A stretch of DNA of 62,264 nt from Arthrobacter sp. SDTb3-6. Lineage in GTDB: Bacteria > Actinomycetota > Actinomycetes > Actinomycetales > Micrococcaceae. The stretch is from NCBI RefSeq assembly GCF_013376095.1, contig NZ_JAAMFN010000025.1, forward strand, positions 1 through 62,264, given 5' to 3'. The notes beneath the pieces are model-generated. The model was not told the DNA's origin. It did not search any database and was given only the letters and a program-made list of their open reading frames with translations. Positions within the stretch are counted from its first letter, which is position 1. Each line of letters starts with the position of its first letter. Position numbers and translations under genes: made by a program. Shown piece after piece: positions 53,356 through 62,105 of this stretch.

Positions 53356-53375
53356 TTCATATTCCATAATATGAA
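53356..53375. promoter_or_regulatory. perfect palindrome upstream of peroxiredoxin gene
   Basis: TTCATATT (53356-53363) and AATATGAA (53368-53375) with a CCAT centre, 42 bases before the peroxiredoxin start, within an AT-rich stretch. It is likely an operator, possibly of an oxidant-responsive repressor (inference). Confidence 0.6.
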
Positions 53376-53417
53376 AATACAATGATGTGGCGTCAGATCA
53401 ACCAACCTGGGAGCACC

Positions 53418-53885
53418 ATGCCTGCACAACTTGCCGCCGGAAAACCGGCACCGAACTTTTCCCTGCCCAACGCCGACGGCGAACAGGTCTCGCTGGCCGA
53501 CTACGCCGGACGCACGGTGGTGGTCTACTTTTACCCCAAGGCCGCGACGCCGGGCTGCACCACCGAGGCCTGCGACTTCCGCGACAGCCTGTCCGCACTG
53601 AACAATGCCGGCGTTGACGTGGTGGGCATCTCCACCGATCCGCAGCAGGACCTGGCCAGGTTCACCACGGACTTCGGGCTGAACTTCCCCCTGCTTTCGG
53701 ACCTCAACCACGAGGTGGCGGAGTCCTGGGGCGCCTGGGGTGAGAAGAAGGTCAACGGCACCACGCTGATCGGCACGCTGCGCTCCACGGTGGTGGTGAA
53801 CCCCGACGGCACCGTCCGGTCCGCCGGGTACAACGTCGCCGCGGACGGCCACGTTGCGCGCCTGCGCCGCGAACTGGGACTCTAG
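53418..53885 (+). CDS. bcp: thiol peroxidase / bacterioferritin comigratory protein (peroxiredoxin)
   Basis: A 155-residue BCP/PrxQ-type peroxiredoxin that reduces peroxides with thiols. The peroxidatic cysteine C47 and resolving cysteine C52 are in PGCTTEACDFRD, the atypical 2-Cys spacing. The usual PKAxTPGCT stretch is present as PKAATPGCT. ATG at 53418 has GGGAG 4 bases upstream; an in-frame ATG at 53382 is less likely. Confidence 0.93.
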   Translation: MPAQLAAGKPAPNFSLPNADGEQVSLADYAGRTVVVYFYPKAATPGCTTEACDFRDSLSALNNAGVDVVGISTDPQQDLARFTTDFGLNFPLLSDLNHEVAESWGAWGEKKVNGTTLIGTLRSTVVVNPDGTVRSAGYNVAADGHVARLRRELGL

Positions 53886-53914
53886 CCGGACCACCCCCCT
53901 GCGTGCTGCAGGGC

Positions 53915-53955
53915 CCCAAGGGGCGCGCCACTTCTGCCGTGGCGCGCCCCTTGGG
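53915..53955 (+). terminator. hairpin after bcp
   Basis: A perfect 17-bp stem (53915-53931 with 53939-53955) has a 7-base loop (TTCTGCC), 30 bases after the bcp stop. No T tract follows. Confidence 0.65.
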
Positions 53956-54007
53956 CGTTAACTTGGCGCAGCTTCAAGGCGGCGCGCCGCAATGTCCGCC
54001 CGGGGGA

Positions 54008-54075
54008 TTGACAACCCCCGTGTGATGCTGTTCACTATTGCATATGCTGAAATAACAGTTCCACGATACGAGAAT
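54008..54075 (+). promoter_or_regulatory. uraD operon promoter with CRP-like box and shared regulon palindrome
   Basis: -35 TTGACA (54008-54013), 17-base spacer and -10-position TTCACT (54031-54036; weak). A CRP/GlxR-like box TGTGA-N6-TCACT overlaps the -10 (54021-54036). From 54059 to 54075 the reverse strand reads ATTCTCGTATCGTGGAA, which matches 15 of 17 bases of the site in front of the NCS1 permease gene. It lies 64 bases before the uraD start. Confidence 0.65.
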
Positions 54076-54138
54076 TAATTTTCAATTCGTATAGCCTACG
54101 CCGTGGATGCCAGCATTTGAGTTACAAGGACAGCAAAC

Positions 54139-54636
54139 ATGTTGCTGCAACAATTCAACGAAGCGGACAGGGCGCAGCTGGACGCAACGCTTCGTCCGTG
54201 CGTGGACAACCAGCGGTGGATCGATGAGATCGCCGCGGCCCGCCCCTTCACCACCCTGAACGAGCTCTTCAGCCATGCGCTCAAGGCTGCCGCCCCGTTT
54301 TCCGGCACGGAAGTTGCCGCCGCCATGGCGCACCATCCGCGCATCGGAGAGCAGGCCGCCGGCAACAGCGCGGAGGCGAGGCTCTCGCGCAGGGAACAGT
54401 CCGGCGTCGACCCTGCCAACGCGGAACTTGCCCGGGCCCTGGCCGAAGGCAACCGCGCCTATGAGGAAAAGTTCGGCCAGGTGTTCCTGATCCGGGCCGC
54501 CGGCCGCACCCCGCAGGAAATCCTGGCCGCGCTGGAGCGGCGCCTGGCCAACACCGCCGAAGAAGAAGCCCCCATCGTGGCGCAGCAGCTGCGCGAAATC
54601 GCCGTGCTGCGCCTCAAAGGAGTGATGAGCCAATGA
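54139..54636 (+). CDS. uraD: OHCU decarboxylase (2-oxo-4-hydroxy-4-carboxy-5-ureidoimidazoline decarboxylase)
   Basis: A 165-residue enzyme that makes (S)-allantoin from OHCU, the last step of uricolysis. The catalytic motif AHHPRIGE is intact (His66 is the expected catalytic residue). It overlaps the next gene by 4 bases (ATGA), forming uraD-uraH-uricase in one transcript. Genes for xanthine dehydrogenase and allantoinase are not in the window. Confidence 0.93.
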   Translation: MLLQQFNEADRAQLDATLRPCVDNQRWIDEIAAARPFTTLNELFSHALKAAAPFSGTEVAAAMAHHPRIGEQAAGNSAEARLSRREQSGVDPANAELARALAEGNRAYEEKFGQVFLIRAAGRTPQEILAALERRLANTAEEEAPIVAQQLREIAVLRLKGVMSQ

Positions 54637-54971
54637 GCTCCCTGATAACCACCCACATTCTGGATACCGCAGCGGGGCAGCCCGCGGCAGGTGTCGCCGT
54701 CGAGCTTTACGCCCGCGACGGCGGGGCATGGCACCAGATTGCGACGGGCACCACTGATGCTGACGGGCGGGTGAAAGATCTTGGCCCCGCGACGCTGCCG
54801 GGCGGCGACTACCGCCTCCGCTTCGACACGGGCGCCTACTTCGCCGGCATCACCACGGACACCTTCTTCCCGGAGGTGGCCCTGACATTCACGGTTGCGG
54901 AAGGCCAGGCGCACTACCACGTGCCCCTGCTGCTGAGCCCGTTCGCCTATTCAACGTACAGAGGAAACTGA
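54633..54971 (+). CDS. uraH: 5-hydroxyisourate hydrolase (transthyretin-related)
   Basis: A 112-residue transthyretin-like enzyme that hydrolyses 5-hydroxyisourate to OHCU. It has THILDTAAGQPAAGV with the conserved His8, and the C-terminal signature is YRGN in place of the usual YRGS, so the last residue is changed. It overlaps uraD and is followed by uricase after 2 bases. Confidence 0.92.
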   Translation: MSSLITTHILDTAAGQPAAGVAVELYARDGGAWHQIATGTTDADGRVKDLGPATLPGGDYRLRFDTGAYFAGITTDTFFPEVALTFTVAEGQAHYHVPLLLSPFAYSTYRGN

Positions 54972-54973
54972 TC

Positions 54974-55885
54974 ATGACCACGAACAGCAACATCATCCTG
55001 GGAGCCAACCAGTACGGCAAGGCCGAGGTCCGCCTTGTCAAGATCACCCGCGACACCGACCGCCACAGCATTGAGGACCTCAACGTCACCTCCCAGCTGC
55101 GCGGGGACTTCACGGCCGCCCACCTCGAGGGCGACAACGGGCACGTGGTGGCCACAGACACCCAGAAGAACACCATCTTCTCCCTGGCCCGCGACGGCGT
55201 GGGCTCCCCCGAGGCGTTCCTGCAGCGCCTCGCCGAGCACTTCACCAGCTCCTTCGACTGGGTCACCGGCGGGCGCTGGGCCGCTGAGTCCTATGCCTGG
55301 GACCGCATCCAGGCCAACGGCACCGGCCACAACCACTCCTTCGTGCGCAACGGCCAGGAGGTGCGCACCGCCGTCGTGGTCAAGGACGGGGACACGGTCC
55401 ACGTGCTGGGCGGGCTGAAGGACCTGACAGTGCTCAAGTCCACTGAGTCAGGCTTTGTCGGCTACCCGAAGGACAAGTACACGACGCTGGCCGAGACCAC
55501 GGACCGGGTCATGTCCACCGACGTCGCGGCCCGCTGGCGCTACAACCCAGCCGCCGTCGCCACCCTGGACTTCAACAAGACCTACGACGACGTCAAGGCG
55601 CTCCTGCTCGAAGGCTTCACCGAGGGCTATTCCCACGCCCTGCAGCAGACCTTGTTTGAGATGGGCAAAAAGGTCATGGACGCGCACGAGGAAATCGACG
55701 AGATCAAGTTCTCCATGCCGAACAAGCACCACTTTGTGGTGGACCTGTCCCCGTTCGGCCAGGACAACCCCGGCGAGGTGCTCTTCGCCGCGGACCGCCC
55801 CTACGGGCTGATCGAGGCCACCGTGGTCCGTGAAAACGGCACCGACGCCGGCAACGCCTGGGAGGGCATGGCCGGCTTCTGCTAG
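54974..55885 (+). CDS. pucL: urate oxidase (cofactor-free uricase)
   Basis: A 303-residue uricase that converts urate and O2 to 5-hydroxyisourate and H2O2. The catalytic Lys (K16 in NQYGKAEVRLV) and Thr (VVATDTQKNTIF) are present, and the C-terminal half carries NKHHFVVDLSPFGQDNPGEV. It completes the pathway with uraH and uraD upstream. The peroxide it makes fits the neighbouring peroxiredoxin gene, although that gene has its own promoter. Confidence 0.95.
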   Translation: MTTNSNIILGANQYGKAEVRLVKITRDTDRHSIEDLNVTSQLRGDFTAAHLEGDNGHVVATDTQKNTIFSLARDGVGSPEAFLQRLAEHFTSSFDWVTGGRWAAESYAWDRIQANGTGHNHSFVRNGQEVRTAVVVKDGDTVHVLGGLKDLTVLKSTESGFVGYPKDKYTTLAETTDRVMSTDVAARWRYNPAAVATLDFNKTYDDVKALLLEGFTEGYSHALQQTLFEMGKKVMDAHEEIDEIKFSMPNKHHFVVDLSPFGQDNPGEVLFAADRPYGLIEATVVRENGTDAGNAWEGMAGFC

Positions 55886-55898
55886 CCGGCACCAAAAA

Positions 55899-55930
55899 GG
55901 GCGGGCGGGGGAGGCAACCCCCGTCCGCCC
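55899..55930 (+). terminator. hairpin after uricase gene
   Basis: A 13-bp GC stem (55899-55911 with 55918-55930, one mismatch) has a 6-base loop, 14 bases after the stop. It may only partly separate the NCS2 permease from the upstream genes. Confidence 0.6.
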
Positions 55931-55993
55931 GCGGCGGCAACTCCCAAAGCGGGTTGCACGCATACCAAGGGTAAGCAGACAAGGAGGTCCGCT

Positions 55994-57472
55994 ATGACCA
56001 AGATCCACGCTTCAACCACCAAGGCTGTCCGTCCCGAGGACGAAAAACTCGGCATCGGCGTCAGCTTCGCGTACGGCTTCCAGCATGTCCTGACCATGTA
56101 TGGCGGCATCATCGCCGTCCCGCTGATCATTGGCCAGGCGTCCGGCCTGGGCTCGGCGGACGTCGGCCTGCTGATCGCCGCCTGCCTGTTCATGGGCGGC
56201 CTGGCCACCCTGCTCCAGACCCTTGGCGTGCCATTCTTCGGTTCGCAGCTTCCGCTGGTCCAGGGCACGTCCTTTGCCGGCGTGGCAACGATGCTGGCCA
56301 TCCTCAACGGCGGCGGCGGCATTCAGTCGATCTTCGGCTCCGTCATGGTCGCCTCGCTGATCGGGTTGGTGATCACCCCCGTGTTCCAGCGCATCATCAA
56401 GTTCTTCCCGCCGGTGGTCACCGGCACCGTCATCACCACCATCGGCCTGACGCTGATGCCGACGGCTGCCGGCTGGGCCATGGGCGGCAACAGCAAGGCG
56501 CCGGACTTCGGCAGCCCGGCCAACATCGGCCTGGCCGGACTGACCCTGGCCATCGTGCTGCTGCTGAGCAAGATCGGCAGCGGCACCATCTCCCGGCTGT
56601 CCATCCTGCTGGCCATGGTCATCGGCACCCTCGTGGCCGTGTTCATGGGCAAGGCCGACTTCTCCAAGGTGGGGACCGGGCCGGTCTTCGCCTTCCCGTC
56701 GCCGTTCCACTTCGGGATGCCGACCTTCCAGGCCGCGGGCATCATTTCGATGGTCATTGTCATCCTGGTGACGCTGGTGGAGACCTCGGCGGACATCCTG
56801 GCCGTCTCCGAGATCATCGGCACCAAGGTGGACTCGCGCCGGCTCGGCAACGGGCTGCGGGCGGACATGGTCTCCAGCGCGGTGGCCCCGGTCTTTGGCT
56901 CCTTCCCCCAGACGGCGTTCGCCCAGAACGTGGGTCTGGTGGCCATCACGGGCATCAAGAGCCGCTTTGCGGTCACGGCCAGCGGCGTGATCCTGCTGGT
57001 GCTCGGCCTGCTGCCCATCGTGGGCCGCGTGGTCGCCGCCGTCCCGACGGCGGTCCTCGGCGGCGCGGGCATCGTCCTGTTCGGCACGGTGGCGGCCAGC
57101 GGCATCCGCACCCTGTCCACCGTCAGCTACAAGAACAACATGAACCTGGTCATCGTGGCCACGTCGGTGGGTTTCGGTGTCATCCCCATCGTCCAGCCCA
57201 CCTTCTACAGCCATTTCCCGGCCTGGTTCGGCACCATCTTCGACTCCGGCATCAGCTCTGCCGCCGTCATGGCCATTGTGCTGAACGTGCTGTTCAACCA
57301 CCTCAAGCGCGGCAACCCGGAGAACCCCTCTGTGTTTGCCGCCGGCACCGAGCGGCGGATTTCCCCGGAGGTGCTGGGCAGCCTGCAGCATGGGGACCGC
57401 TGCGAGGAAGGGAAGCTGATCGACGCCGACGGCAAGGAGGTCCCGGTGCTGGAACCTGACCCGCAGCACTGA
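55994..57472 (+). CDS. NCS2 urate/xanthine permease (uracil-xanthine permease family)
   Basis: A 492-residue transporter with about 14 TM helices. The family signature is FAQNVGLVAITGIKSRFAV, and QLPLVQGTSFAGVATM is the conserved TM3 region. It is most likely a urate or xanthine:proton symporter feeding the uricase pathway, with AAGGAGG 6 bases before its ATG. Members of this subgroup carry purines rather than ascorbate. Confidence 0.92.
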   Translation: MTKIHASTTKAVRPEDEKLGIGVSFAYGFQHVLTMYGGIIAVPLIIGQASGLGSADVGLLIAACLFMGGLATLLQTLGVPFFGSQLPLVQGTSFAGVATMLAILNGGGGIQSIFGSVMVASLIGLVITPVFQRIIKFFPPVVTGTVITTIGLTLMPTAAGWAMGGNSKAPDFGSPANIGLAGLTLAIVLLLSKIGSGTISRLSILLAMVIGTLVAVFMGKADFSKVGTGPVFAFPSPFHFGMPTFQAAGIISMVIVILVTLVETSADILAVSEIIGTKVDSRRLGNGLRADMVSSAVAPVFGSFPQTAFAQNVGLVAITGIKSRFAVTASGVILLVLGLLPIVGRVVAAVPTAVLGGAGIVLFGTVAASGIRTLSTVSYKNNMNLVIVATSVGFGVIPIVQPTFYSHFPAWFGTIFDSGISSAAVMAIVLNVLFNHLKRGNPENPSVFAAGTERRISPEVLGSLQHGDRCEEGKLIDADGKEVPVLEPDPQH

Positions 57473-57497
57473 TATCCATCCCCGTTCCCAACCACGT

Positions 57498-57540
57498 ACG
57501 ACGCCGGCACCCGCCTCCCCAGGGCGGGTGCCGGCGTCGT
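57498..57540. terminator. hairpin between NCS2 permease and SDR genes
   Basis: A perfect 18-bp stem (57498-57515 with 57523-57540) has a 7-base loop. The two genes are convergent, so it probably serves both. Confidence 0.75.
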
Positions 57541-57568
57541 TCGTGGTGGGCCGGGGGTTTTGCCGCGT

Positions 57569-58348
57569 TCAGCCGCGGCCGATGAACGGCATGCCCGCGG
57601 CCGTGATGACGAGCGAGCCGATGTTGGCCGAGGCGGGGAGCTGGGCCATCAGCAGCACGGTGCGGGCGGCGTCGGCCACGGGGAAGGTGGGTTCCACGAG
57701 CCGGCTCCCGTCCGCCTGGAGCGCTCCGGTGGCGACGTCCAGGGTGGCCATGATGTCCGTGGCCGTGTTGCCGATGTCGATCTGGCCGCAGCTGATGCCG
57801 AAGGCCCGCCCGTCGAGCTCGATCGACTTGGTCAGGCCCGTCATGGCGTGCTTCGTGACGGTGTAGGCGACGGATTTGGGCCGCGGCGAGTGGGCCGAGA
57901 TGGAGCCGTTGTTGATGATCCGCCCGCCGCCGGGCTGCTGTGCCTTCATGACGCGGACGGCGGCGGCCGCGCACAGCATGGAGCCGGTGAGGTTCACGGC
58001 CAGCACGGCGTCCCAGTCCGCCGGGGAGATCTCGTCCACCGCGGCCGCCGGGCCAAAGGTGCCGGCGTTGTTGAACAGCACATCCACCCGGCCAAACCGG
58101 TCCACGGCGGCACGGAAGAGGTTTTCGACGTCGTCCGGCCGGGTCACGTCGGTGGGCACGGCCAGCGCCTGGGGGTGGCCCTCGGCGGTTTCCCCCAGCT
58201 CCGCCGCACGGCGGCCGGCCAGGACCACCCCGAAGCCGTGGCGCAGGAATTCCCGGGCCACGGCCCGGCCGATTCCCGAGCCGGCGCCTGTGACCACGGC
58301 AATCTTCGCCGGTGCGCCGCTGCCTGCGGGGGTGTCGGTCTCCGCCAT
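57569..58348 (-). CDS. short-chain dehydrogenase/reductase
   Basis: A 259-residue classical SDR: cofactor motif TGAGSGIG (near residue 20), NNAG (near 94), catalytic Ser in NGSISAHS and YxxxK in [14 protein letters not shown] or NAD use is not clear. The start at 58348 has GGAGAAG 4 bases upstream. It is divergent from the ADH gene, so the two may work in one oxidation pathway (inference). Confidence 0.9.
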
Positions 58349-58519
58349 GGGCTTCTCCTGTCTATCGTTGCCGCATAAAAAAGTAGTTGGCGCGGGAACG
58401 CAGGCCCGCCTGTCCATTCTCGCCCATGGATTCTGCGCCTGCGGTCCGCGGGAAGAATCCGGGGTTTTGGGCGTTATGCACATTGTCTTACATTCAAACG
58501 CATGAAAAGGGGAAGCGTC

Positions 58520-59482
58520 ATGAAGGCATGGCAGTTTACGGGCACCGACAAGGCTCTCGGGTTCAACGGGGTCGCCGAGCCGAAGGCCGGTCCCGGCCAG
58601 GTTGTGGTCGAGGTCAAGGCTGCCGGGGTCTGCCACTCCGATGTGACAGCCCTGGATGATCCAGGCTGGATGCCTCTTTTTCCCGTGCTGCCGCGCACCA
58701 TGGGCCACGAAAATGCCGGCGTGATCGTCGAGGTTGGCGAGGGCATGGACCAGTGGCAGGTCGGCGACCGCGTCGGCCTGGCCCCTGTCATGGCTGACGG
58801 CGACGCCCTCGGCTACGGCAAATGGGACGGCGGATTCGGGCCAAAACTGCTCGCGACGTCGGACAACCTGGTCAAGCTGCCCGACGAGGTTTCATTTGAA
58901 CTTGGTGCGATGGCGACTGACGCCGGCCTCACCGCGTATCACGCCATCATGACTGTCGGCGGCGCCAAGCCGGGCATGAAGGTTGGCGTGATTGGCCTCG
59001 GCGGCCTGGGCTACATTGGCGCCCGCGTCGCCGCGCTCTCCGGCGCCAAAGTGTATGGGGCGGAGATCAATCCGGAAACACGGAAACTGGCCGATGAGAT
59101 TGGGCTGGCGGGCGTCGCCGAGTCGATCGACGCGTTCAAGGACAAGAAGCTCGACCTCATTGTCGACTACGCGGGTTTTGGGACCACCACGGCCGCCGCA
59201 ATCGAGACACTCGCTGAGTTTGGGACGTTGGTCCAGGTCGGCATGGGCCGCCTGGAAGCGACCATCAACACCTACCCGATCATCATCAACCAACTCAGCA
59301 TCAAGGGTTCCAAGTCCGGCACCAAGGAAGACCTCGAGGCACTGTACGGGCTGATGAAGTCCGGCGAATTGAACCCGCCGATGAACCTCATCACCCAAGC
59401 CGAGATCCCTGGCGCGATTGACAAGCTGCGTGCCGGCGGAGTGGTCGGCCGCTACATCGCGACTATAAGTAGGCTGGACTAG
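58520..59482 (+). CDS. zinc-dependent alcohol dehydrogenase (ADH-A-like, no structural zinc)
   Basis: A 320-residue medium-chain dehydrogenase. Catalytic zinc ligands are C38 (GVCHSD), H63 (GHENAG) and Asp in [12 protein letters not shown] instead of the usual Cys, the same C/H/D set as in Rhodococcus ADH-A. The four-cysteine structural zinc lobe is absent. The Rossmann motif is [17 protein letters not shown]. Start 58520 has AAGGGGAAG 5 bases upstream. Its stop shares CTAG with the convergent racemase gene. Confidence 0.92.
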
Positions 59483-60207
59483 GCAGGTCCCGTGATCGGC
59501 CAGCCGGTCACCTTCTTGGGCCGCGGCGGCGCGTACGTGCGCACCTTGGAGGTGGACAGGCCGAGGCGCACCAGCGATTCGGCAATCGTGACGGCGGCAG
59601 CCACGCCGTCCACCACGGGCACGCCCGTGCGTTCCCTGACCAACTCGTTCAGCCCGGCCATGCCGCCACAGCCCAGGACGATGACTTCCGCCCTGTCCCG
59701 CGTCACGGCGAGCTCGGATTCGCGGACAATGGACTCCACGGCCCGCTCCGGATCCTCCTCGAGTTCCAGGACGGCCAGGCCGCTGGCCCGCACCGACGCG
59801 CAACGGGCGTCCAGGCCCGCCAGCTTCAGCCGGTCCTCAATCAGGGGGACGGCACGGTCCAGCGTGGTCACCACCGAATACTTGTAGCCCAGGAACATGG
59901 CCGTGCTGGCCGCCGCCTCGGTGATGTCGACGACCGGCACCTCGAGGAGTTCCTGCAGGCCCTCCCGGCCGTGCTCGCCGTAGCCGGCCTGGATGACGGC
60001 GTCGAACGGTTCGGGGTAGTTGGTGATCGCGTCCATGACGGCAACGGCCGCCAGGTAGCTTTCAAAGTTTCCCTCGCAGGACTCGGCGCCGAAGCGGGGC
60101 GTGATGCCGATGATCTCGGTGCCTGGGGCCGCCACACTGCGCGCCTGCGCCGCGATGGAGTCCGTCATGGACGTTGTGGTGTTGACATTGGCCACGAGGA
60201 TGCGCAT
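59479..60207 (-). CDS. Asp/Glu/hydantoin racemase-family protein lacking the first catalytic Cys
   Basis: 242 residues of the Asp/Glu/hydantoin (allantoin) racemase fold. The second catalytic cysteine is intact (C180 in VIVLGCGGMAGL), but the position of the first holds glycine (G75 in VIQAGYGEHG instead of the usual ACFGD). Arylmalonate decarboxylase, a relative, also keeps only the second cysteine. It is co-oriented with and 41 bases after the NCS1 permease gene, which suggests an allantoin or hydantoin substrate. AAAGGGA precedes the ATG. Confidence 0.85.
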   Translation of the reverse strand: MRILVANVNTTTSMTDSIAAQARSVAAPGTEIIGITPRFGAESCEGNFESYLAAVAVMDAITNYPEPFDAVIQAGYGEHGREGLQELLEVPVVDITEAAASTAMFLGYKYSVVTTLDRAVPLIEDRLKLAGLDARCASVRASGLAVLELEEDPERAVESIVRESELAVTRDRAEVIVLGCGGMAGLNELVRERTGVPVVDGVAAAVTIAESLVRLGLSTSKVRTYAPPRPKKVTGWPITGPA

Positions 60208-60248
60208 GGCAGTCCCTTTCTTGCTTGTTTGGCTGTTTGGGTGCCGGG

Positions 60249-61808
60249 TCAGTGGGTGCTCGCGACGGCGATGGGTTCGCCGGACGCTTCGGTGAAGCTT
60301 TGGTTCCGGTCCGAGATCCAGTAATACGTTACGGCCGCGATGCCCGCACCGAAGAACCAGGAGAAGGAGGACAGCTCGTGGAACGTGGGAATGAAGGCGA
60401 TGAGCAGGGCCACGACGCCGGCGGGCACCAGTGCGGCGATCGCCTTGGGGTTGACGCCGCGGCGGTAGTGGTAGCTGGCGTTTTCGTCGGTCGTATACAG
60501 GTGCGGCACGTTGACCTTGCCGCGGCGCAGCAGCCAGTAGTCGGCCATGATGACACCGAACAGCGGGCCCAGCAGGCCGCCCAGCCCGCCCAGGAAATAC
60601 ACGATCACGACGGGGTTGTTGTACAGGTTCCAGGGCAGGATGACCAGCCCGATCGTGGCACTGATGATGGCCGCCTTGCGGAAGTTCAGGTGCCGCGGGA
60701 AGAGGTTGGTGAGCGCGTACACGGGTGCCACGACGTTGGCCATGAGGTTCACCGCCACGGTAAGGATCAGCAGCGCCAGGCAGGCAACCACCAGCAGGAA
60801 GGTGTTCGGAATGAGGTGGACCACATCGGCCGGGCTTTGGATGATGGTACCGTTGATCTTGAACTGGGCCCCTGCCATGACCACCACGATCGCCCCGAAC
60901 AGGAGCATGTTGATCGGGATGCCCCAAAAGTTGCCGCGAACGATGGACTTCTCGCTCTTGGCCGAGCGGGTGAAGTCGCAGAAGTTCAGCACGAAGGTTC
61001 CGTAGATGGCCACCCACAGGGCGCCGCCGCCAAAGATGGTGCGCCACATTTCGCCACCGGTCAAGGCATGGTTGGTGGTCCAGGCGATCGAGCCGCCGGC
61101 ACGGATGAACATCCAGATGGCGATCGTGGCCATCGTGACCAGGATGATGGGGCCCGCAAAGGCCTCGTACTTGCGGATCATGTCCATGCCGTAGCTGACA
61201 ATGACCACCTGGACAATCCAGAGCGCAATGAACGTCAGCCAGCCAAGCGCGGACAGGCCCAGGATCAGGCTCTTGTCCAGCCCGTGCAGTGGGGGAAAGA
61301 CCGCCACCAGCATGACGCGGAAGACCACCGAGGCCAGGAACGTCTGTACGCCGAACCAGACAATGGCCACGCCGCCGCGCAGCAGCGAGGACACCTGGGC
61401 GCCCTTGATGCCGAAGCTGATGCGGCTCATGACGGGGAACGGGACACCTGTCCGCACGCCCATGAACCCGGAGAAGTTAAGCAGCCCAAACAGCAGCGCG
61501 GCGCCGATGCCCAGGGCCAGCAGGATTTGCCAGCCGCCCAGACCCAGCGCAAACAGGCCGATGGCGAAGGCATAGTTGCCGAGGCTGTGGACGTCGTTGG
61601 CCCAGAGCGTGAAGATGCTGTAGGACGACCAGCGGCGCCCCTTTTTCCGGGTGGGCGCAAGGTCCTGGTTGAAGAGTGTGGCGCTGAGCGTGTATCCCTC
61701 CGGGGTTGCGTAGGGCACATGCTCCGTTGCATGCGCCGCTGCCGGCAGGCGGTCAGTCATGGCCGGCACCATTGCCGGTTCAAGATCATTGGGTATCCGA
61801 GCGTTCAT
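60249..61808 (-). CDS. NCS1 hydantoin/allantoin permease
   Basis: A 519-residue NCS1 transporter with 12 TM helices, of the PucI/Mhp1 group: WANDVHSLGNYAFAIGLFAL (TM1 region), GPLFGVIMADYWLLRRGKVN and NLYNNPVVIVYFLGGLGG. It should import allantoin, hydantoin or a related purine or pyrimidine derivative with Na+ or H+. The start at 61808 has GGAG 7 bases upstream. It is the first gene of an operon with the racemase relative. Confidence 0.9.
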   Translation of the reverse strand: MNARIPNDLEPAMVPAMTDRLPAAAHATEHVPYATPEGYTLSATLFNQDLAPTRKKGRRWSSYSIFTLWANDVHSLGNYAFAIGLFALGLGGWQILLALGIGAALLFGLLNFSGFMGVRTGVPFPVMSRISFGIKGAQVSSLLRGGVAIVWFGVQTFLASVVFRVMLVAVFPPLHGLDKSLILGLSALGWLTFIALWIVQVVIVSYGMDMIRKYEAFAGPIILVTMATIAIWMFIRAGGSIAWTTNHALTGGEMWRTIFGGGALWVAIYGTFVLNFCDFTRSAKSEKSIVRGNFWGIPINMLLFGAIVVVMAGAQFKINGTIIQSPADVVHLIPNTFLLVVACLALLILTVAVNLMANVVAPVYALTNLFPRHLNFRKAAIISATIGLVILPWNLYNNPVVIVYFLGGLGGLLGPLFGVIMADYWLLRRGKVNVPHLYTTDENASYHYRRGVNPKAIAALVPAGVVALLIAFIPTFHELSSFSWFFGAGIAAVTYYWISDRNQSFTEASGEPIAVASTH

Positions 61809-62105
61809 GCCTTGGCTCCGCTGTTCGTTTTTTCCACGCCTCGATTTCTCGTATCGTGAAAACCAATTTTTGAATAGTGAGAAGACTTTATGATGTGGTT
61901 CACACCGTGTCAAGTGGCGCACATCACGCCCCACACTCCATGGGGACCGGCGTTCGAGCTTGATTCACGGACGGGGGCCCGATATTCTCAAGATACAAGA
62001 TTCAATTCTCACCTTACGAAAACGATTCGCAAGGTGGTCCCCTCCCCCCGGAACCACGGCCGCACAGCGCACGACGCCCGGACGCCTTCAAACAGACAGG
62101 TTGAC
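61809..62105. promoter_or_regulatory. divergent control region: NCS1 promoter, CRP-like box and shared regulon palindrome; aceE upstream region
   Basis: For the NCS1 gene (minus): TTGACA (61913-61908), 17-base spacer, -10 TAAAGT (61890-61885), CRP-like box TGTGA-N6-TCATA (61904-61889) and the 17-base imperfect palindrome TTTCTCGTATCGTGAAA (61845-61861) in the 5' leader. A further stretch of TTCTC-starting motifs lies at 61985-62012, nearer aceE; their meaning is unclear. No clear aceE promoter can be assigned. Confidence 0.6.

What the first reader, a model, noticed from the sequence alone, without database searches (positions are those of the whole stretch)
54008..61913. One shared operator and CRP-like box in front of two urate/allantoin operons
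The uraD operon promoter and the opposite-strand NCS1-racemase promoter have the same architecture. Both have TTGACA with a 17-base spacer and a CRP-like TGTGA-N6-TCA box (54021-54036; 61904-61889). Both also carry, 23-24 bases below the -10, a 17-base imperfect palindrome (core TTTCnCGnnnCGnGAAA): ATTCTCGTATCGTGGAA (54075-54059, minus) and TTTCTCGTATCGTGAAA (61845-61861), identical at 15 of 17 positions. Sequence similarity plus equal position makes chance unlikely. They are 7.8 kb apart and point at a single, previously unassigned regulator (perhaps IclR-type) that joins uricolysis and allantoin/hydantoin import.
Basis: partly seen in the sequence, partly recalled or inferred. Interest (0 to 1): 0.78.

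Follow-up and report, generated by a model that had tools for sequence, protein, structure and literature searches.

The report
RNA leader and operator before uraD

Summary
Comparison splits the finding in two. (1) The box is an IclR-type operator (TTYCRYNRTRYGRAA). In this genome it recurs at a second permease gene, bcp, and in a purine cluster that encodes an IclR-family regulator with a box at its own promoter. That regulator has orthologs in all 30 chosen genomes. (2) The uraD copy is also the 5' strand of stems P2a/P2b of a ~78-nt structured RNA (54041-54118). The RNA precedes uraD by 15-35 nt in Arthrobacter, Pseudarthrobacter, Paenarthrobacter, Sinomonas, Microbacterium and Paraoerskovia. 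On 73 distinct rows 97.8% of cells pair and 9 of 18 pairs change on both sides, in three helices. It has no Rfam match and differs from the xanthine-I (NMT1) riboswitch. The NCS1 leader has no such RNA. Best reading: an IclR-type repressor site just downstream of the promoter, overlaid on a riboswitch-like leader tuned to a urate-pathway metabolite. RNA structure is well supported; ligand, switching, transcript start and IclR binding are inferred. Other Micrococcaceae genera carry a second, unrelated structured uraD leader.

The parts
54008..54013 (+). -35 hexamer TTGACA of the uraD operon
   Evidence: sequence; present in all 19 uraD leaders of the genus
54021..54036 (+). CRP-like box TGTGATGCTGTTCACT; its end overlaps the weak -10 candidate TTCACT (54031-54036)
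   Evidence: TGTGA-N6-TYA in 19 of 74 leaders with the RNA
54041..54118 (+). structured RNA leader (here called uraD-I): P1 54044-54049/54111-54116, J1 AAATAACAGT 54050-54059, P2a 54060-54065/54102-54107, P2b 54066-54071/54087-54092, variable apical loop 54072-54086, J2 AGCCTACGC 54093-54101, TGC 54108-54110
   Evidence: covariance-model match 98.4 bits; covariation
54126..54130 (+). probable Shine-Dalgarno AAGGA of uraD, about 10 nt after P1
   Evidence: sequence
54139..54636 (+). uraD, OHCU decarboxylase
   Evidence: TIGR03180
54633..54971 (+). hydroxyisourate hydrolase (uraH/hiuH)
   Evidence: TIGR02962
54974..55885 (+). urate oxidase
   Evidence: TIGR03383
55994..57472 (+). NCS2 xanthine/urate-type permease
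   Evidence: TIGR03173
59479..60195 (-). Asp/Glu/hydantoin racemase family gene of the NCS1 operon
   Evidence: PF01177; no NCBIfam match
60249..61808 (-). NCS1 permease, allantoin-permease-like
   Evidence: PF02133; best NCBIfam match NF008476 is below its cut-off
61889..61904 (-). CRP-like box TGTGAACCACATCATA, mostly inside the -35/-10 spacer
61885..61913 (-). NCS1 promoter TTGACA-17-TAAAGT
62007..62022 (+). second, weaker box (2 mismatches) upstream of the NCS1 promoter
53362..53377 (+). further IclR-type box in front of bcp (peroxiredoxin), the gene upstream of uraD

Best explanation
The uraD operon has two overlapping controls. A conserved IclR-type box about 20 bp downstream of the likely transcription start is bound by the IclR-family regulator of the purine/glyoxylate cluster, which also acts at NCS1, bcp and its own divergent promoter; when its effector appears it releases and transcription proceeds (regulator and box inferred from comparison, binding not shown). 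The transcript then begins with a ~78-nt folded RNA (P1, P2a, P2b and two conserved junctions; structure supported by covariation) ending about 10 nt before the Shine-Dalgarno sequence. It most likely senses a urate-pathway purine (uric acid or a near relative) in its conserved junctions and sets translation of uraD by stabilising or releasing P1 next to the ribosome site (inferred). The box forms the 5' strand of P2a/P2b, so the same bases serve as operator and as RNA stem. The NCS1 operon shares only the operator.
For: RNA: the element is in 19 of 19 uraD leaders of the genus. On 73 distinct rows 97.8% of cells pair, 9 of 18 pairs have two-sided changes in all three helices, covariation score 0.239 against 0.104 shuffled and at most 0.087 for slid versions. 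Microbacterium-type members replace UCCACG/CGUGGA by UCCGGC/GCCGGA. At the two pairs with most change (24-143, 28-128) the one-sided intermediates are 13 G-U and 0 A-C. Of 91 viral stretches with a 16-nt seed the 80 listed gave 0. uraD follows at 16-35 nt in 54 of 56 family loci and at 15-35 nt in 73 of 77 named loci; the six others end before the gene. In the four carrier genera of the family sample 56 of 59 UraD genomes have the RNA, 0 of the other 133 (by-genus counts by hand). Operator: the box lies 41-53 bp after TTGAC in five uraD leaders where neither RNA was recognised (L422, L426, L457, L461, L462), and 50-54 bp in 61 of 74 leaders with this RNA. Its last base A33 is invariant in 73 of 73 rows although it can pair in only 35. 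IclR gene, its boxes and neighbours.
Against: No ligand, transcript start or protein binding was tested; the promoter scan finds no consensus promoter and no terminator at 53880-54240. The RNA's range is narrow: 6 of 394 genomes of the class sample, none outside the order. Pairing is not perfect: over all 18 pairs the odd cells are 20 G-U, 16 A-C and 13 other; pair 31-125 has 6 A-C and no G-U, the outermost P1 pair is unpaired in 15 of 73. One of five leaders printed (L070) has almost no P1 in the folding calculation, and the 73 leaders folded show no clear on/off state at the ribosome site (median unpaired probability 0.41), so the expression platform is unknown. In Microbacterium-type rows P2a drifts from the box (1 mismatch, 2 in three rows), so dual use may not hold everywhere. 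Covariation counts sequences, not independent events, and named rows were selected with a seed that covers J1. 41 IclR-type DNA-binding domains in the genome leave the choice of regulator open.
Confidence: 0.6

Rival explanations
1. DNA only: the uraD leader holds a double IclR operator (one intact box and one interrupted by about a helical turn); apparent RNA pairing is the inverted repeat of two operators recognised by one protein.
For: The 3' strands of P2b/P2a read TTCGTAT-9 bp-CGTGGAT, an interrupted box. The box is at a near-fixed distance from the promoter in leaders with and without RNA.
Against: Microbacterium-type members change both strands of P2a to UCCGGC/GCCGGA or UCCGGG/CCCGGA, while the iclR upstream regions of the same genomes (G398, G385, G650) keep boxes of the usual kind. 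G-U intermediates dominate at the two most variable pairs. P1 pairing and the invariant junctions AAATAACAGT and TGC are not operator features. The apical stretch varies from 3 to 56 nt in the family rows.
Confidence: 0.1
2. RNA only: the leader is a regulatory RNA and the likeness of P2a/P2b to the IclR box is chance or shared composition.
For: The sequence is almost fully used by the RNA stems, and the box drifts in Microbacterium-type members.
Against: A box at <=1 mismatch is found in 33 of 53 uraD leaders without this RNA against 5 of 1060 shuffles (in some of the 33 the best box lies away from the promoter). Invariant A33 without consistent pairing. Same-genome boxes at the IclR cluster.
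Confidence: 0.2
3. The RNA is a target of an RNA-binding protein, small RNA or leader-peptide mechanism rather than a metabolite aptamer.
For: No ligand is known. An AUG in GGAUGCC or GAAUGCC of the 3' strand is invariant.
Against: In the few leaders read by eye the frame after that AUG stops at different places or stays open. Invariant bases sit in internal junctions, as in ligand pockets of known riboswitches. One gene, uraD, is downstream wherever it could be read.
Confidence: 0.22
4. A CRP/GlxR-type protein is the shared regulator and the palindrome is secondary.
For: TGTGA-N6-TCA boxes at both promoters and TGTGA-N6-TYA in 29 of 53 other uraD leaders.
Against: Only 19 of 74 leaders with the RNA carry it. 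By general knowledge it is a global-type motif and would not define a pathway regulon.
Confidence: 0.08

Closest known systems
Xanthine-I (NMT1 motif) riboswitch
   Same: A P1 / J1 / P2a / J2 / P2b rod with conserved bases concentrated in the two junctions, in front of purine-oxidation genes; binds xanthine and uric acid (PMC7373994, PMC8266621, passages read).
   Different: Reported only in Proteobacteria. Its junction is G7-A-A-G-C-G12 with A39-U40 opposite, P2a has three pairs and J2 is A16/C33-C34-G35 (assembled from residues named in the text; figures not seen). Here J1 is AAAUAACAGU with UGC opposite, P2a has six pairs and J2 is AGCCNACRC. No Rfam match overlaps the element at E<=10.
IclR-family operators, group 1 (GKTYCRYW3-4RYGRAMC)
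   Same: Box TTYCRYNRTRYGRAA, an IclR-family gene with a box at its own promoter, catabolic regulon.
   Different: Here one operator doubles as a strand of an RNA stem. The main text of PMC8222616 has no occurrence of Arthrobacter or purine (term search).
E. coli AllR (allantoin regulon repressor)
   Same: IclR-family control of allantoin-related genes.
   Different: AllR binds KTTGGAAWAWTWTTCCAAC (Table 1 of PMC8222616). The regulator here matches the NCBIfam AllR, IclR and BhcR models only below their cut-offs.
CRP/GlxR-type boxes
   Same: TGTGA-N6-TCA at both promoters.
   Different: Not conserved across the set; protein not identified.

Membership tests
Cis-regulatory structured RNA leader (riboswitch-like) | Secondary structure supported by compensatory changes | tested here: met
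   9 of 18 pairs in three helices, 97.8% of cells paired on 73 distinct rows
Cis-regulatory structured RNA leader (riboswitch-like) | Invariant bases in joining regions | tested here: met
   J1 and TGC invariant in 73 of 73; part of the rows were selected by a seed covering J1, but the 52 distinct family rows found with the covariance model alone also share J1
Cis-regulatory structured RNA leader (riboswitch-like) | Constant place before functionally related genes | tested here: met
   uraD at 15-35 nt in 54 of 56 family and 73 of 77 named loci, the other six ending before the gene; also 6 of 6 Microbacteriaceae loci
Cis-regulatory structured RNA leader (riboswitch-like) | Ligand binding and ligand-dependent expression | not testable with these tools
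   needs in-line probing and reporters
Xanthine-I (NMT1) riboswitch | Match to a curated model of the class | tested here: not met
   0 gathering-score hits in the window; none overlapping 54020-54140 at E<=10
Xanthine-I (NMT1) riboswitch | Pocket bases G10, C11, G35, A39, U40 in their junctions | tested here: not met
   compared by eye with the residues named in passages of PMC8266621; junction sequences and P2a length differ
IclR-family group-1 operator | TTYCRY-N3-RYGRAA palindrome | tested here: met
   uraD and NCS1 sites of the window have 1 mismatch (second-last base of the 15-mer); 53 of 74 uraD-I leaders have 0 mismatches, 18 have 1, 3 have 2
IclR-family group-1 operator | Same box at the promoter of an IclR gene in a pathway cluster | tested here: met
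   best box at 0-1 mismatch in 29 of 29 iclR upstream regions of 250 nt and in the thirtieth, L416
IclR-family group-1 operator | Protein binding | not testable with these tools
   gel shift needed
CRP/GlxR site | TGTGA-N6-TCACA conserved at the promoter | tested here: inconclusive
   TGTGA-N6-TYA in 19 of 74 and 29 of 53 leaders

The most novel reading that the evidence does not exclude
A new riboswitch class for a urate-pathway metabolite whose aptamer stem is at the same time the operator of the pathway's IclR repressor, so one short sequence is read once as DNA and once as RNA; a second, unrelated leader RNA in sister genera was built on the same operator independently.
Probability: 0.35. 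Interest if true: 0.88.

Novelty: new variant of a known kind. Interest (0 to 1): 0.74.

Why it matters
The validated riboswitch for oxidised purines that I read about (NMT1) is reported only in Proteobacteria. A different architecture in actinobacteria, fixed in front of uricolysis, offers an immediately testable aptamer for urate or a neighbour, of possible use as a uric acid sensor. If the overlap with the IclR operator holds, it shows how a DNA operator and an RNA stem can be selected in the same bases, and that this may have arisen in two different leader RNAs.

Tried and rejected
NMT1/xanthine-I membership: rejected on model match and junction bases. Known Rfam family: none, for the window's leader or for twelve other uraD leaders (the two weak hits lie on the opposite strand). 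Shared RNA at NCS1: rejected; model R2 over 34 loci (20 NCS1-type, 4 of this genome, 10 iclR regions) gives one 14.6-bit hit at E 0.66, and R1 with filters off gives 98.4 bits at 54041-54118 and at most 11.9 elsewhere in the window. The 17-bp palindrome as the true unit: replaced by a 15-bp box after comparison. A short leader peptide: not supported by eye. A terminator or consensus promoter: none found by scan. A weak match in another family (L129, 22.4 bits, E 0.072) has none of the nine window proteins beside it and was left out of the structure counts. Folding of leaders with the ribosome site gave no clear switch.

Rows left out: A1 has 17 of 19 uraD leaders (two identical to L019 omitted). 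A4 was hand-picked for diversity: 43 of the 56 family loci, 6 Microbacteriaceae loci, 25 of the 77 named loci; some are the same strain twice (73 distinct rows). A5 has 29 of 38 type II leaders (duplicates, truncated or diverged rows and one long-loop row left out). Of the 117 seed stretches five gave no convincing match: L169, L202, L211 (Bacteroidota by title) and L259, L264 (titles not looked up). In searches of more than 40 genomes the tool used stricter filters, so weak members may be missed. Mononucleotide shuffles were used, which is a mild control.
Full report
The two 17-mers are at the given places, differ at two of 17 bases and are the only window matches at up to three mismatches; the whole genome adds one site at three mismatches. 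The uraD-side genes are uraD, hydroxyisourate hydrolase, urate oxidase and a xanthine/urate-type permease; the opposite operon is an NCS1 permease and an Asp/Glu/hydantoin racemase. The promoter elements and CRP-like boxes are as described, except that the uraD -10 at a 17-base spacer is the poor hexamer TTCACT and a consensus scan calls no promoter there. The strict 17-mer at up to two mismatches is found in only 6 of 23 genomes of the genus, the own one included.

Comparison within the genus changes the picture. UraD is found in 17 of 23 genomes. In all 19 uraD loci the leader is almost frozen: TTGACA, then TTCACTATT, CTGAAATAACAGTTYCACG, a loop of variable length, ATAGCC, ACGC or ACAC, and GTGRATGCCAG. 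The halves are complementary. They form P1 (AUGCUG/CAGCAU), P2a (UCCACG/CGUGGA) and P2b (AUACGA/UCGUAU), separated by junctions AAAUAACAGU / UGC and AGCCNACRC. Three two-sided changes, one per helix, appear already among 17 leaders.

A covariance model (R1) found the element in 56 of 295 genomes of the family, in 4 of 32 genera. In the window it scores 98.4 bits at 54041-54118 and at most 11.9 elsewhere. On the 56 hits (52 distinct) 97.9% of cells pair and 7 of 18 pairs change on both sides. A second model (R2) matched 19 of 396 genomes of the order, one of them weakly (22.4 bits), with a second family among them, and 6 of 394 of the class, none outside the order. R2 matches 77 of the 80 listed and 35 of the 37 unlisted, two of these being cut by the stretch end. 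Titles name Arthrobacter, Pseudarthrobacter, Paenarthrobacter, Sinomonas, Microbacterium, Paraoerskovia and two unplaced actinobacteria; the three listed failures are Bacteroidota. The 80 listed of 91 viral stretches with a shorter seed gave none.

On 74 chosen rows (73 distinct) 97.8% of cells pair and 9 of 18 pairs have two-sided changes. The covariation score is 0.239 against 0.104 in shuffles and at most 0.087 when partners are slid. The strongest single fact is in Microbacterium-type members: P2a is UCCGGC/GCCGGA, although the iclR upstream regions of three such genomes keep boxes of the usual kind. At pairs 24-143 and 28-128 the intermediates are 13 G-U and no A-C, as expected of RNA. 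Over all 18 pairs the tally is less clean: 20 G-U, 16 A-C, 13 other, with six A-C at 31-125 and most of the rest at the P1 end. These are counts of sequences, not of independent events, and rows from the seed scan were selected for the 5' junction.

uraD begins 16-35 nt after the element in 54 of 56 family loci and 15-35 nt in 73 of 77 named loci; the six others end before the gene. The same holds in six of six loci of the second family. In the family sample UraD occurs in 192 of 295 genomes. By hand count the RNA is present in 17 of 17, 15 of 15, 4 of 4 and 20 of 23 UraD genomes of the four carrier genera and in none of the other 133. The -35 hexamer lies such that transcription would start at or just before P1, by inference.

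No Rfam family matches. The nearest known design is the xanthine-I (NMT1) riboswitch, which has the same rod of P1, P2a, P2b and two conserved junctions and binds xanthine and urate, but is reported from Proteobacteria. Its pocket bases (G10, C11, G35, A39, U40) and three-pair P2a are not found here (PMC7373994 and PMC8266621, passages). Searches of the held library gave no paper that, by its listing, describes this RNA (some searches listed only part of their papers). Term searches of the main text of two large surveys of new bacterial RNAs find no Arthrobacter, Microbacterium or urate, apart from one reference title (PMC11109978 and PMC8632094), and a review of former orphans has none either (PMC7266159). 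Subscription papers and supplements were not seen.

The box fits the published IclR group-1 consensus (PMC8222616, passages). In this genome the consensus gives 19 sites at up to two mismatches against four for the reversed pattern. They include a second NCS1-type permease gene (contig C52), bcp, an MFS transporter (C61), and three sites in a 19-kb stretch of contig C89. That stretch has a xanthine-dehydrogenase-type gene, 8-oxoguanine deaminase, an IclR-family regulator, a malic-enzyme-like gene, malate synthase, ureidoglycine aminohydrolase, 2-hydroxy-3-oxopropionate reductase and a TPP enzyme. An ortholog of that regulator is present in 30 of 30 genomes that I chose among carriers of the RNA. 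A box with at most one mismatch is in the 250 nt before iclR in 29 of 29 and in the thirtieth. Before bcp a box at 0-1 mismatch is found in the 16 distinct loci of the window's genus read, while 15 loci of genus g7 (Sinomonas) have none better than three mismatches; peroxiredoxin would fit the peroxide made by urate oxidase (inference). Against a firm assignment, the genome has 41 IclR-type DNA-binding domains.

Is the uraD box an operator or only an RNA stem? Of 53 uraD leaders lacking this RNA, 33 have a box at no more than one mismatch, against 5 of 1060 shuffles; in some of the 33 it lies away from the promoter. In five leaders where neither RNA was recognised it is 41-53 bp after TTGAC, and in 61 of 74 leaders with the RNA 50-54 bp. 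The last base of the box, an adenine, is invariant in 73 of 73 rows although it can pair in only 35. I therefore think both roles are real in Micrococcaceae: an operator at a nearly fixed place, over which the RNA stem was built. In Microbacterium-type members the stem drifts from the box by one or two bases, so dual use may be weaker there.

The mechanism beyond this is inference. An IclR repressor at about +20 would block transcription until its effector (glyoxylate or a purine catabolite) appears. The RNA, ending about ten bases before the ribosome site and without a terminator found by the scan, would act on translation through P1. Folding calculations do not show a clear switch, and no ligand was tested.

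A second, unrelated leader RNA was met on the way. It is in 38 of 53 other uraD leaders, from eight genera. In 24 of the 29 aligned rows the outer stem starts with box-like TTCCRY. It encloses CAUCGARUC, a variable hairpin and GGGUGUUCAGC, and the last can pair with GCUGA(N)CACCC just before the start codon. Own stem strands pair better than the median cross-genus pairing in 29 of 29 (mean -15.7 against -9.7 kcal/mol). A model (R3) matches 6 of 297 genomes of the order, four in this family with strong scores and two weak ones outside. Eight leaders of this type were among the twelve scanned against Rfam without a match of note.

Noticed in passing
38 loci: L424, L425, L427-L429, L431-L439, L441, L443-L450, L452-L456, L458, L464-L471, L473: A second, different structured uraD leader (type II) in eight other Micrococcaceae genera, with a covarying outer stem and a conserved strand that can pair over the start-codon region; no Rfam match in the eight that were scanned.
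   Followed up: partly
window 53362-53377: IclR-type box in front of bcp (peroxiredoxin), present at 0-1 mismatch in the 16 distinct loci of the genus read; suggests that peroxide defence is co-regulated with urate oxidase.
   Followed up: partly
L387 (G000 contig C89, 664-18905): Purine/glyoxylate cluster (xanthine-dehydrogenase-type gene, 8-oxoguanine deaminase, IclR regulator, malic-enzyme-like gene, malate synthase, ureidoglycine aminohydrolase, TPP enzyme) with three IclR-type boxes; the IclR gene and the malic-enzyme-like gene are divergent.
   Followed up: partly
L083, L086, L087, L090, L092-L103 (genus g10): In the sister genus g10 the RNA precedes uraD-uraH without a urate oxidase match within the stretches held; in L086 a GATase-domain and an AIR-synthase-like gene follow.
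   Followed up: partly
L013 and L028 (G012); L021 and L029 (G019); G018 contigs C4, C7, C15: Duplicated uraD loci with duplicated RNA leaders in two genomes, and three RNA copies, at least two of them near contig ends, in a third.
   Followed up: no
L389 near 15891 (G000 contig C52:91890-91906): A second allantoin-permease-like NCS1 gene has its own near-perfect IclR-type box.
   Followed up: no
window 53910-53961: Strong GC-rich hairpin between bcp and the uraD promoter; it lacks a T-run and the scan does not call it a terminator.
   Followed up: no
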